A stretch of 64,000 nt of DNA. Source: Brachycybe producta (Eukaryota > Arthropoda > Diplopoda > Playtdesmida > Andrognathidae). The position numbers and the translations under genes are program-made. Where the stretch lies: positions 117,501-181,500 of the forward strand of contig JAUPFP010000009.1 of assembly GCA_036925085.1 (NCBI GenBank). Direction: 5' to 3'. The notes beneath the pieces are model-generated. The model was not told where the DNA came from and made no database searches. It saw nothing but the letters and a program-made list of their open reading frames with translations. This document shows, piece after piece, positions 51,685 to 55,344 of this stretch. Position 1 is the first letter of the stretch. The number at the start of each line of letters is the position of its first letter.

Positions 51685-54600
51685 TTAGGGACCGGACGGC
51701 TTCTCTGGCGGTGTCGCGAAAGTGGAGCCCATCCCCTCCGCAGCCCACCGACGTGCCCACCACAAGCACATCTGGGTGTTACGCCACCCAAAACCAGTAT
51801 CAAAAGCTGTCCCCCTAAGACGGCTTTCCTCCAGGGCTCGGAATTCCTCAAAAGGAATATCCTGGAGTTGCGGACGCGTGCGAAGCGTCCGACTTGTCAG
51901 GAGGTCTACCAGGGCAACCGCGGGCTCGGTCTCGCACCCTGGTAGCGGCTCAGTAATAAACTGACCAGCCATACCTCCCAAGTCGCATCCCAGCAAACGT
52001 TGGATGAATGGGGCTGCACGCCGGGCTAGACGAACTATCCCGGCATCTAGTCCCACCACATCCAAAATAGCAAACGTTTGCTGGACCGGATTTACGACCA
52101 TAATCACCGGAAAACCTCCACAACCAAACGCCACCACATGGCGCATGTTGTACGGCGGTAGCCTCGCTACCCACGGCTCTGGAAGTGGCTCATCCAGACG
52201 GTAGTAGCCGTGGTATTGGCAACCCTCCATTCCCGGTTGGTCCTGCCAGAGACCAAGCCGGTTATTCAGATACACCTCTGCATCTGAATACGGGGGCAAT
52301 GCGCCAATACGCCGTCCCTCGGCCTCAGGCCTAGGGGAGGTTGACGTTTCAGGTCCTAGGGTATCGAATACCCCACCGCCATGGACCGGAGAAAAGGATG
52401 TACCCCTACTGGGGGTCACGGGGTCACGTATGGCGGGAACACTAACTCCTGCAACCAAGGTTCCTTCGCCCCTAGGTGAGGGTAAAGTCACCCGGTGCAG
52501 GGTTCCCACCGCTCGAACCCGCAGGTTCGAGACCGCATCCACCTTCGGGGAGGATGGAGGCGTGCCGACCAAAACGTCGCGCATCGACCTACCATCCATC
52601 CGCGCCGCCTCTACGGGACGGGTATGGACCGGTTGACTCCCGGCCGGCGTGCTTGCCTGAGCACGCCGGGACTCCTCCTTTTCCGCCACGACGCCTCCAG
52701 TTTCGGCTCCCTGGCGCCTACTACTGGAGGGTGTCGGACTTCCCTTCCTCTCACGCTTGGACCTCTTTCGGTCCTTCTTATTTTTCTTTTTCTTCCCGTG
52801 AGAGGAAGGTTGACCATGCGTCGGGTCAGACTCAACTGACCCCGACGACTTACTGGGCCGATCGGGCTTAGGAGGGTGGTTAGCCCCCTTCGCCTTCTCG
52901 GACTCCTTCTTCGAAGGTTTTCCGGCCGGAGCCGTACTCTTCTTTGAAGAAGTGCCCTTAGCCGATGTGACAGTCGAGGACGATTGTCCGGAGACAAATC
53001 TTCCTCGACCATCCCGAAGGAGAGACTTCTCCTTCGGTGCAAGAGTCGGCTGACTCTTGCCACCAGTCGCTTTGGCTTCCGCACCATGGGCTGGTGCACT
53101 GGAAGCCTGCATCGCCTCCCTCTCGGCGATTCGCTTCTGGCCAGCGATGGTCGTGGCACTCGCAATAGGCGGGACACCACGACCGACAGGAGGTTCCCCT
53201 GTTTTGAGCGGGCTCCGGGCGGGCATTCCCTGCAGGGGAGGGAATTCCGCAGCCCGGCGCTCAAACTCCTGCCGCTCTCCTGCACCGACCGCACGAGCGA
53301 TCTGTCGGTGCAGGCTCGCTGCTTGAGCCTGAAGCCGTCTGAGCTTATCCTCTAAGCTCTCGGGCTTCCGAGGTTCGGAGGCCTTTCCTCGACCTGAGGA
53401 CCTGGCCTTCTTACCTCTCGAGCTTTCAGCCACTGGTGGGGTGTGAGGGCGGGACCTCTTTTGTTCCTTTCCACCACCACCACTCACAGATTTTCCCATT
53501 TTACCGGGAGCGGGTACTGGAGGCTGGGTAGCCTTCTTCTCCGCTCGCCGGTCCCTCTTCGGGTTGTCCGACCGCCAGCCGGAGGGGCCAGCTACTGCCT
53601 CGGGCGGACCCGATCCAGCAGCCGGCTTCTCTGGCCAAGCAGCCCCTGGACAACCTTCAGGGTGGGCGAGAGTTTCCGCTCGCAGCCCCACAGCAGGCGT
53701 GAACTTCTTCAACGCCTCCTCCTTAGCTTTGAGTAGAGCCTCTCTCTCTGCGAGAGCCTTGGCTCTGGCAGTGATCCGTGCGGCTCCGGACTTTTTCTTG
53801 CGCTTCTTCGCGCCGTCCTTCCTCACCTGCACGGTTGGAAACTCCCCGACGAAGCACCGACGGTCCCTGACCAGGAAGCCACCTTCCTGGACCATGTCCC
53901 GTCTCGCTTCGTCCAACCGATCCAAGCGGTCTTCTTCTTCGGCCAAGGACACAGCCACGGCCTCCAAAGACATTGGATCGGCGGGAAGTACTCCGGGGGA
54001 TCCCGTCCCAGACGGTTTACCCTCGGAGGCCGAACTACTCCCGTCAGACTCCGAAGAGCCCTCTGAAGAGGCATTGCGGCTCCGCCACTGCCTTGAGGCG
54101 TCAACCACCGAATCCACGGTGGTTTCGGCCTCCATCTCCGTGTCGATGACTAAGGACGCTCCCAAAGAGACGTCCTCACTGTCCTCGACCACCCTAGACC
54201 AATCTAGGAGGTCTCGAACAGACGGAGACCCGGGTTCCGGGGTACTAGCGGTTACCACACCGGTAGCCGCCTTCCCACCATCAATACCCGCTTCTGCAGG
54301 CTCTCCAACCGGAGAAACTACCGCCGCCACCGACTGAACGGTGGTAGCAGCCGTATCTCTGGTAGGAGACTGCAGGTATCTGCCCCAGAAGGCTCCGACA
54401 CCGGTCGGAGTCGACTGGGCAGACCCCGGACCTTCCACGGCTTCTGCCGCCGGGGAATCAACAGATTTTACGGTAGCATCCGCCGCTTCCGGCCCGCCAG
54501 ATGATGGGGAGCCCTCCGATCCCGACTCCAACAGCCTTGCATCCCCGGGATGCAGCGGGCTGAGGGAGGGGGACCGTTGGCCACTCCCGTCGCCTTCCTC

Positions 54601-55344
54601 CTTCTCCTTCTCCGTGGTGGACCTGTTAAAAAGTGAAGAGACTGTCAATAACAAGTTTTCACCGTGGAAAAGGGAATTCCACGGACCTTTACCGTGAGAA
54701 CTCCCGTTTTCACCGTCCAAAGTCGGTAATTCACGGTCAAAACCGTGTTTTACCGTCTTCGTCCGGTGAAAACAACTTTTCCCCCTTTCAGAACCGGTAG
54801 AAAGGGTATTCCACGGGATTTCACCGTGCGAATCGCGGTTTCCACCGTCCAAAGTCGGTAAACCACGGTAAAAACCATGATTAACCCCCTTCGGACGGTG
54901 AAAACACCCTCTCACCGAGTTCCGACGGTTGGAAAGGGCATTGCACGGACTTCTACCGTGCAAAATGCCGTTTTCACCGTCCAAAGTCGGCAATTCACGG
55001 TCACAACCGTGTTTCACCGCCTTCGATCGGTGAAAACCACTCCCTGGCGGGCTTCTACCGTCCAAACACCGTCGAACTTGGGCCTTCCCAAGCGAAACGG
55101 CGCCCGGACGGGCTGAACCCGCCGGAAAAGTGCTTTCCACAGTGGTTTGGCCTCCATGACAACAGTCATAGCGGCGAAACCACACCCACCACGTGTGTAT
55201 ACGGTCAATGATGCTCTGGTGCAATGATGTCTTTTTCACAGATGCCCTCTTTCTCCAGTTCGTGGTGGCCTCTTTGACGGTGAATTGTGGTTTTGTTTTG
55301 TGAACCACGTGCGGCCGGCGTTTTTTGTTTAAGTTTGCAAACAA
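51685..55344 (-). CDS. Gypsy-A third coding region (ORF3), function unknown
   Basis: This frame is open for 1219 codons. Residues about 105-228 are three 44-residue repeats. From about residue 241, after a putative splice acceptor, it reads STTEKEKEEGDGSG and then SPSLSPLHPGDARLLES. Residues about 480-560 hold likely coiled coil (REALLKAKEEALKKF), followed by basic low-complexity sequence with DNPKRDRRAEKKA, another coiled coil (LEDKLRRLQAQAASLHRQIA) and KKKKNKKDRKRSKRERKG, which could act as a nuclear or nucleic-acid-binding segment. The last about 215 residues look folded: YLNNRLGLWQDQPGMEG, CQYHGYYRL, FPVIMVVNPV, FAILDVVGLDAG, ALVDLLTSRTLR, GFGWRNTQMCLWWARRW. Gypsy-B conserves this domain closely. 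No env features are seen. The first codon of the open frame is not ATG. It overlaps the pol frame by 140 bp at 55205-55344. Confidence 0.8.
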   Translation of the reverse strand: MFANLNKKRRPHVVHKTKPQFTVKEATTNWRKRASVKKTSLHQSIIDRIHTWWVWFRRYDCCHGGQTTVESTFPAGSARPGAVSLGKAQVRRCLDGRSPPGSGFHRSKAVKHGCDRELPTLDGENGILHGRSPCNALSNRRNSVRGCFHRPKGVNHGFYRGLPTLDGGNRDSHGEIPWNTLSTGSERGKSCFHRTKTVKHGFDRELPTLDGENGSSHGKGPWNSLFHGENLLLTVSSLFNRSTTEKEKEEGDGSGQRSPSLSPLHPGDARLLESGSEGSPSSGGPEAADATVKSVDSPAAEAVEGPGSAQSTPTGVGAFWGRYLQSPTRDTAATTVQSVAAVVSPVGEPAEAGIDGGKAATGVVTASTPEPGSPSVRDLLDWSRVVEDSEDVSLGASLVIDTEMEAETTVDSVVDASRQWRSRNASSEGSSESDGSSSASEGKPSGTGSPGVLPADPMSLEAVAVSLAEEEDRLDRLDEARRDMVQEGGFLVRDRRCFVGEFPTVQVRKDGAKKRKKKSGAARITARAKALAEREALLKAKEEALKKFTPAVGLRAETLAHPEGCPGAAWPEKPAAGSGPPEAVAGPSGWRSDNPKRDRRAEKKATQPPVPAPGKMGKSVSGGGGKEQKRSRPHTPPVAESSRGKKARSSGRGKASEPRKPESLEDKLRRLQAQAASLHRQIARAVGAGERQEFERRAAEFPPLQGMPARSPLKTGEPPVGRGVPPIASATTIAGQKRIAEREAMQASSAPAHGAEAKATGGKSQPTLAPKEKSLLRDGRGRFVSGQSSSTVTSAKGTSSKKSTAPAGKPSKKESEKAKGANHPPKPDRPSKSSGSVESDPTHGQPSSHGKKKKNKKDRKRSKRERKGSPTPSSSRRQGAETGGVVAEKEESRRAQASTPAGSQPVHTRPVEAARMDGRSMRDVLVGTPPSSPKVDAVSNLRVRAVGTLHRVTLPSPRGEGTLVAGVSVPAIRDPVTPSRGTSFSPVHGGGVFDTLGPETSTSPRPEAEGRRIGALPPYSDAEVYLNNRLGLWQDQPGMEGCQYHGYYRLDEPLPEPWVARLPPYNMRHVVAFGCGGFPVIMVVNPVQQTFAILDVVGLDAGIVRLARRAAPFIQRLLGCDLGGMAGQFITEPLPGCETEPAVALVDLLTSRTLRTRPQLQDIPFEEFRALEESRLRGTAFDTGFGWRNTQMCLWWARRWAAEGMGSTFATPPEKPSGP
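54623..54645 (-). promoter_or_regulatory. Putative splice acceptor in Gypsy-A ORF3
   Basis: On the minus strand CTCTTCACTTTTTAACAG ends at 54623 and is followed by GTCCACCACGG. It matches the pyrimidine tract plus CAG of a 3' splice site. Protein similarity to Gypsy-B (EKEKEEGDGSG against EKEETGGGGSG) begins just after it. Confidence 0.45.
54645..55045 (-). repeat. Gypsy-A pol-ORF3 hairpin tract: 132-bp direct repeats coding 44 residues
   Basis: CCGTCCAAAGTCGG recurs at 54713, 54845 and 54977, exactly 132 bp apart. The repeats are dense in ACCGTG and CACGGT inverted words. In the ORF3 frame they read VKHGCDRELPTLDGENG, VNHGFYRGLPTLDGGNR and VKHGFDRELPTLDGENG, each followed by HG and PCN or PWN. 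The open frame and the multiple-of-three period suggest that the tract is translated. Confidence 0.75.

What the first reader, a model, noticed from the sequence alone, without database searches (positions are those of the whole stretch)
51685..55344. A large third ORF of unknown function in the env position of a Ty3/gypsy lineage
Gypsy-A has 1219 open codons after pol, and the diverged Gypsy-B has a homologous region (17800-20667, extending to 21909). The last about 200 residues are strongly conserved between them (GYYRL, VVNPV, LDVVG, ALVDLLTSRTLR, GWRNTxMCxWW), while the middle is basic low complexity. No signal peptide, membrane helix or fusion motif is visible, so this does not look like env. 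Known gypsy-lineage extra ORFs are mostly env-like; a basic protein with a separate folded C-terminal domain is unusual as far as I know.
Basis: partly seen in the sequence, partly recalled or inferred. Interest (0 to 1): 0.87.

Follow-up and report, generated by a model that had tools for sequence, protein, structure and literature searches.

The report
Pol tail with dead-protease-like fold
The supposed third gene of this mobile element is the long tail of its main enzyme gene, cut off in this copy; the tail's end is preserved by selection and seems shaped like a protease that has lost its active site.

The parts
62479..63278 (-). 5' LTR of Gypsy-A (800 bp, TG...CA), followed by 4-bp target-site duplication CATG at 63279-63282
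   Evidence: sequence read; 1 mismatch of 800 to the other LTR
50808..51607 (-). 3' LTR of Gypsy-A (800 bp), target-site duplication CATG at 50804-50807
60196..62055 (-). gag frame (Retrotrans_gag, CCHC zinc knuckle)
   Evidence: Pfam hits 1.1e-10 and 3.5e-4
56480..60190 (-). pol frame: protease, RT, RNase H, integrase; ends at an in-frame stop inside integrase that L061 and L062 do not have
   Evidence: Pfam; L061 and L062 read on at this place
55205..56479 (-). rest of integrase in the same frame, RPRRP-type end at 55841-55870, then first part of the spacer
55218..55237 (-). copy-specific junction that separates the tail frame from the pol frame
   Evidence: 1 genome match for the junction, 112 for a 15-base pattern of the unbroken form
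54623..55837 (-). spacer between integrase and tail; holds the 132-bp tandem repeat (54669-55041); open in frame in L061, L062, L063 and L064
   Evidence: A-B dN/dS 0.38-1.14 in its 60-column windows, two windows saturated; frame-0 stops 0, other frames 17/30, 18/29, 5/8; repeat
54603..54642 (-). 3' splice-site-like AG taken here as the start of the tail (first base after it 54622); selection does not mark this point sharply
   Evidence: top score, by a score of my own, of 759 AG sites in A; homolog at 20667 top of 776 in B; AG kept in 7 of 7 sequences that could be aligned; identity profile
51685..54622 (-). tail, 978 residues plus stop: acidic (246 aa, pI 4.2), basic (484 aa, pI 11.1), C-terminal domain (248 aa)
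   Evidence: composition; dN/dS
51688..52431 (-). C-terminal domain (core 51718-52302), Ulp1/adenain-like fold inferred from its distant homolog, catalytic residues not kept
17816..20667 (-). homologous tail of Gypsy-B, broken into several frames; C-terminal domain 17816-18526

Best explanation
The feature is the 3' part of a long pol frame of a Ty3/gypsy-type LTR retrotransposon: integrase, an open but fast-evolving spacer, then a roughly 980-residue tail. The tail has an acidic stretch, a very basic (nucleic-acid-binding, nuclear-type) stretch and a C-terminal domain with an Ulp1/adenain-like fold lacking catalytic residues. Shown: the single frame in the copies read, selection on the C-terminal domain, recurrence, and a strong acceptor-like AG before the tail. 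Inferred: the unspliced genomic RNA makes a Pol-tail fusion, and a spliced mRNA entering at or near that AG makes the tail alone, as in CERV of Cer1. The tail acts in the nucleus: the basic part holds RNA or DNA and the dead protease domain docks on a host protein (a SUMO/ubiquitin-like partner is my guess), most likely to get unspliced element RNA exported, possibly also to guide integration.
Confidence: 0.35

Rival explanations
1. The tail works only as part of Pol: an integrase C-terminal extension that guides the pre-integration complex to chromatin, the dead Ulp1-like domain reading SUMO or ubiquitin marks, like the chromodomain of chromoviruses in role and Ginger1 transposase in layout.
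For: Tail is in frame with integrase in the family A, B and C copies read; Ginger1 has a Gypsy-type integrase followed by Ulp1 or OTU (passages of PMC2836005); spacer frame kept open; in L062 the GT-AG stretch is in phase, so removing it would still give a Pol-tail fusion.
Against: In lineage E the homolog is a separate ORF; no insertion-site preference was tested.
Confidence: 0.3
2. The C-terminal domain is not CE-clan at all; the tail is a structural or Gag-like nucleic-acid-binding protein with a fold not yet known.
For: Window A model finds nothing; no sequence match to Pfam, PDB or a C48 stretch; moderate Z.
Against: 43 of 50 rows are one fold class, and an Ulp1-like arrangement was guessed from sequence beforehand.
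Confidence: 0.25
3. It is an env-like protein, its hydrophobic stretch lost in this copy.
For: Position after pol; hydrophobic 19-mer in L061 and L062.
Against: That stretch lies in windows with dN/dS 0.99-1.14, is absent from the two family-C copies, and one hydrophobic stretch before an acidic and a basic part and a soluble-looking C-terminal domain is not an env layout.
Confidence: 0.03
4. A host sequence captured once and carried without function.
For: No relative found outside this genome; family C against its older relatives gives dN/dS 0.57-0.61 with upper bounds 1.00-1.11.
Against: dN/dS below 1 with bounds below 1 between A and B and within A, B and lineage E; at least two lineages, 150 scored rows in each and about as many in 66.
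Confidence: 0.03

Closest known systems
CERV of Cer1 (C. elegans Ty3/gypsy), PMC10309623 (abstract, passages and sections 9 and 15 read)
   Same: Element class; position between pol and 3' LTR; C-terminal part in the polyprotein frame with an acceptor (TTTCAG) before it; not env; no obvious homology outside nematodes for the one and none found outside this genome for the other; a domain resembling an enzyme without its catalytic residues (there a G-protein-like one).
   Different: CERV is 517 aa with a GTPase-like domain; this tail is about 980 aa with an Ulp1-like domain. Splicing and RNA export are shown for CERV, not here. The two sequences were not compared.
Ginger1 DNA transposons, PMC2836005 (passages read)
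   Same: Gypsy-type integrase followed in the same protein by an Ulp1 (or OTU) domain.
   Different: Ginger1 is a DNA transposon with terminal inverted repeats and an Ulp1 domain assigned to pfam02902; this is an LTR retrotransposon, its domain unrecognised by Pfam and without catalytic residues.
CE-clan cysteine proteases (Ulp1/SENP, adenain)
   Same: Predicted fold of the lineage E homolog.
   Different: No catalytic Cys or His equivalent; no sequence match.
ORF3s of bdelloid rotifer LTR elements, PMC5408684 (abstract and part 1 of the results read)
   Same: Non-env extra ORFs after pol.
   Different: Those are GDSL esterase and DEDDy exonuclease ORFs with, per the paper, intact catalytic residues, and are described as ORF3s downstream of pol.

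Membership tests
Ty3/gypsy (Metaviridae) | LTRs, gag, and pol in the order PR-RT-RH-IN | tested here: met
env-like ORF3 | conserved membrane anchor | tested here: not met
   the only marked hydrophobic stretch is unconstrained and absent in the two family-C copies
env-like ORF3 | signal peptide | not tested
   no dedicated program at hand
CE-clan / Peptidase C48 | CE-clan fold | tested here: inconclusive
   E-lineage model matches, window A model does not; model confidence moderate or low
CE-clan / Peptidase C48 | catalytic His-Asp-Cys | tested here: not met
   Cys column 133 Ala 20 of 21, Val 1; no His at equivalent column 70 in 21 rows, but His two residues earlier in 4 of 7 E rows and one later in 1 of 7; by spacing the Asp is D124 in window A but Gln in lineage E (positions assigned by inference)
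CE-clan / Peptidase C48 | match to Pfam PF02902 | tested here: not met
   0 of 16 A2 members; E ORF none; none of the 12 genome matches coincides with a listed tail row
CERV | C-terminal part in the polyprotein frame after pol | tested here: met
CERV | made from a spliced mRNA | not testable with these tools
   only acceptor-like AG and a donor-like GTAAGT seen
CERV | nuclear, needed for genomic RNA export | not testable with these tools
   no expression data
CERV | sequence homology to CERV | not tested
   no Cer1 sequence was at hand
Ginger1 | DNA transposon with terminal inverted repeats, no RT | tested here: not met
   LTRs and RT present

The most novel reading that the evidence does not exclude
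An LTR retrotransposon lineage has turned an Ulp1-like protease into a catalytically dead docking module fused to Pol and also made separately by splicing, so that one sequence serves both genomic RNA export and the integration complex through a host SUMO or ubiquitin-like partner.
Probability: 0.2. Interest if true: 0.78.

Novelty: new variant of a known kind. Interest (0 to 1): 0.57.

Why it matters
Extra sequence after pol is often called env by position. Here the position holds a non-env tail that is part of the pol frame, with a selected, pseudo-protease-like end. If right, it is a second case, after CERV, of a Ty3/gypsy element using an enzyme-like domain without its activity, and it extends the integrase-plus-Ulp1 pairing of Ginger1 to LTR elements. 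It gives a testable candidate for RNA export or integration targeting. It also warns that a 'third ORF' read from one copy can be a broken fusion.

Tried and rejected
Database searches with no relative of the tail: Pfam (only rows below cut-off, such as EAD9 at 0.28), PDB by sequence (only weak rows, E 0.38 or worse), phage records (16), IMG/VR (17: 5 pattern matches, none confirmed), 5.8 billion proteins at about 670-2,133 aa (18) and 1,010-3,216 aa (53). The third protein search, with RT (89), listed the best 120 of 7,880 pol relatives, so the database does hold eukaryotes; none of the 120 passes the tail HMMs (best E 0.81). 110 had an integrase hit, 70 reached its C-terminal end, with a median of 49 residues after it; the longest, up to 1,519, were not examined one by one (94).

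Membrane/env reading: rejected because the hydrophobic stretch is unconstrained and missing in the two family-C copies.

I had held that selection begins exactly at the AG: it does not; identity rises for 40 codons only. I had held the GTAAGT-AG stretch to be out of phase: that is so in L061 (665 nt) but not in L062 (726 nt). For the first of these I lowered the main confidence from 0.40 to 0.35, and I raised the unknown-fold rival from 0.20 to 0.25 on re-reading the Z background note.

Within-family variant counts (shared variants 37 syn/10 nonsyn in A, 31/7 in B; singletons 25/30 and 26.5/30.5) point to selection, but those copies were picked by protein similarity to the query, which biases against nonsynonymous changes, so I do not lean on them. 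The older copies were picked from rows without stops inside, also a bias towards intactness.

Foldseek 'pdb' and 'viral' searches never ran, so the fold comparison is VIA-align's look at Foldseek's top 1,000 only. The chimallin rows (5 of 50) were not followed.

Literature searches for an LTR retrotransposon with an Ulp1/C48 domain; for a gypsy tail or extra ORF after integrase: (0 papers). Nothing in the listings described this tail, judged from titles and abstract starts; only open-licence papers are held, and Repbase was not searched.
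Full report
What is there. Gypsy-A lies on the minus strand with 800-bp LTRs at 50808-51607 and 62479-63278, one mismatch between them, and a 4-bp duplication CATG on both sides (read). It is therefore a recent insertion. gag is at 60196-62055 and pol at 56480-60190; Pfam finds gag, CCHC, aspartic protease, RT, RNase H and integrase. The frame named in the finding, 51685-55344, is open for 1,219 codons. Gypsy-B carries a homologous but broken region.

Why it looks like a third ORF. 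Two features of this copy cut the tail off from pol: an in-frame stop within integrase, and a short replaced stretch near 55218-55237 that changes the frame. The replaced junction is found once in the genome, in this copy. A 15-base pattern of the corresponding unbroken sequence is found 112 times, against 1 for the pattern read backwards. In an A-family copy (L061, with L003), a B-family copy (L062, with L051) and two C-family copies (L063, L064) integrase runs into the tail in one frame. The genome search reports frames of at least 2,600 codons ending in the domain in 11 of 150 scored rows of the A query and 18 of 150 of the B query, 12 of them exactly 2,897; 4 C-family rows have exactly 2,478. 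What those frames hold upstream was read only in the four copies named. These searches score only the best 150 of about 1,500 candidates, so copy numbers are lower bounds.

Where selection acts. In 60-column windows between A and B, dN/dS is 0.02-0.16 in integrase, 0.38-1.14 in the spacer (0.99 and 1.14 around the hydrophobic stretch) and 0.13-0.62 in the tail (several windows are saturated). Against family C the basic part is looser: single windows reach 0.78 (A-C) and 1.21 (B-C). The C-terminal windows are the steadiest: 0.22-0.38 A-B, 0.13-0.58 A-C, 0.17-0.61 B-C. Codon-position differences say the same: third positions change much more than first and second in integrase and the C-terminal domain, but little more in the spacer. 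Yet the spacer is kept readable: frame 0 has no stop in A, B and C while the other two frames have 17 and 30, 18 and 29, and 5 and 8; none of 2,000 base shuffles was open for A or B, and 2-3 of 2,000 for C. The two window copies, not chosen for similarity, give 0.33 (0.23-0.48) for the C-terminal domain; lineage E gives 0.13-0.33, A 0.32-0.33 and B 0.36-0.40 within the family, all with upper bounds below 0.64; family C against its older relatives gives 0.57-0.61 with upper bounds 1.00-1.11.

The tail boundary. I take the tail to begin at 54622 in A and 20667 in B, right after TTTTTAACAG and TCTTTTTCAG. With a simple score of my own, this AG is the best of 759 AG sites in A and of 776 in B. I had noticed it before scoring, so the rank is descriptive. 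AG is kept in 7 of 7 sequences that could be aligned there. Selection does not mark the point sharply: A-B identity is 9 of 19 and 12 of 20 in the next 40 codons, then 5-8 of about 20 for 120 codons, much as in the spacer. A GTAAGT in the spacer of L061 and L062 lies 665 and 726 nt before the AG, out of phase in the one and in phase in the other; the two family-C copies have no GTAAGT in their shorter spacer. From the boundary the tail has 246 acidic residues (pI 4.2), 484 basic ones (pI 11.1) and 248 of the C-terminal domain.

A second lineage. A query from an older element in the window (RT at 46913-47545) led to another gypsy lineage, E, many of whose rows have pol frames of 1,573-1,597 codons. 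Downstream of pol in L078 is a separate 416-codon ORF whose C-terminal part resembles the tail domain. Profile comparison gives E about 4e-4 and probability 34%; the score of 32.6 exceeds all 200 column shuffles (maximum 26.6) and the reversed profile (15.8). The order of conserved blocks (LNN..LWQ, D in a late helix, LRG-FD-G-W) agrees. Among listed plus-strand rows, as I retyped them, 62 of 83 E tails lie 2.8-3.2 kb behind an RT row on the same strand. A third group, with 2,287-codon frames, has in L077 a pol-fused tail that by eye keeps only the last motif.

How it may work. The best analogue I found is CERV of Cer1: a non-env protein whose C-terminal half is encoded after pol, its last exon in the polyprotein frame behind TTTCAG, nuclear and needed to export unspliced genomic RNA (PMC10309623). 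One of its domains resembles a G protein without the catalytic residues, a parallel to the present case, not a homology. The best architectural analogue is Ginger1, a DNA transposon whose Gypsy-type integrase is followed by Ulp1 or OTU (PMC2836005). I favour a nuclear adaptor made both as a Pol fusion and, by splicing, alone. The fusion frame is well supported; the splicing, the nuclear role and the partner are inference. The main rival is a purely integrase-linked targeting role.

Relation to what is known. Extra ORFs after pol are known in plants (PMC7264820, abstract) and rotifers (PMC5408684, abstract and part 1 of results). I found no description of this tail in the listings, within the limits of the held library. 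The nearest pol relatives in the protein search come from Cordylochernes (a pseudoscorpion, by recall), frogs, spiders, ticks, a choanoflagellate and others; at the end of integrase the 70 that reach it have a median of 49 further residues. The host was not identified.

Noticed in passing
window 9851-12293 (-): Remnant of a non-LTR retrotransposon: RVT_1 (1.6e-29) and endonuclease-reverse transcriptase domain (5.6e-12) in separate frames.
   Followed up: no
window 49372-50067 (+): Open frame with a GDSL-like lipase domain (7.5e-11), next to the Gypsy-A insertion, opposite strand.
   Followed up: no
window 45.6-48.8 kb (-): Older gypsy element of lineage E (RT piece about 55% identical to Gypsy-A); its genome relatives carry the distant tail homolog as a separate ORF.
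   Followed up: yes
L077 (G000:C5:7125400-7129400): A third gypsy group with 2,287-codon frames: pol-fused tail that by eye keeps only the last motif of the domain.
   Followed up: partly
G000:C12:3728210-3728509 and C27:1094205-1094504: Two equal-scoring Peptidase_C48 matches inside 1,049-codon frames, perhaps a mobile element with a recognisable Ulp1 domain.
   Followed up: no
window 62080-62440 and 54669-55041 (-): The 5' leader and the spacer are both rich in repeated ACGGT/ACCGT motifs, the leader also in CGGACTTTTGTCCG-like ones; L062 has similar spacer motifs. Purpose unknown (by eye).
   Followed up: no
L061 and L062 spacer; window 21341: A GTAAGTCCC donor-like site kept between families A and B, followed closely by a second acceptor-like pyrimidine stretch (second-best AG score in window B) that overlaps the hydrophobic stretch.
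   Followed up: partly
window 40284-41239 and 31943-33148: Long tandem arrays (10/20/30-base and 157-base units) between the gypsy elements.
   Followed up: no
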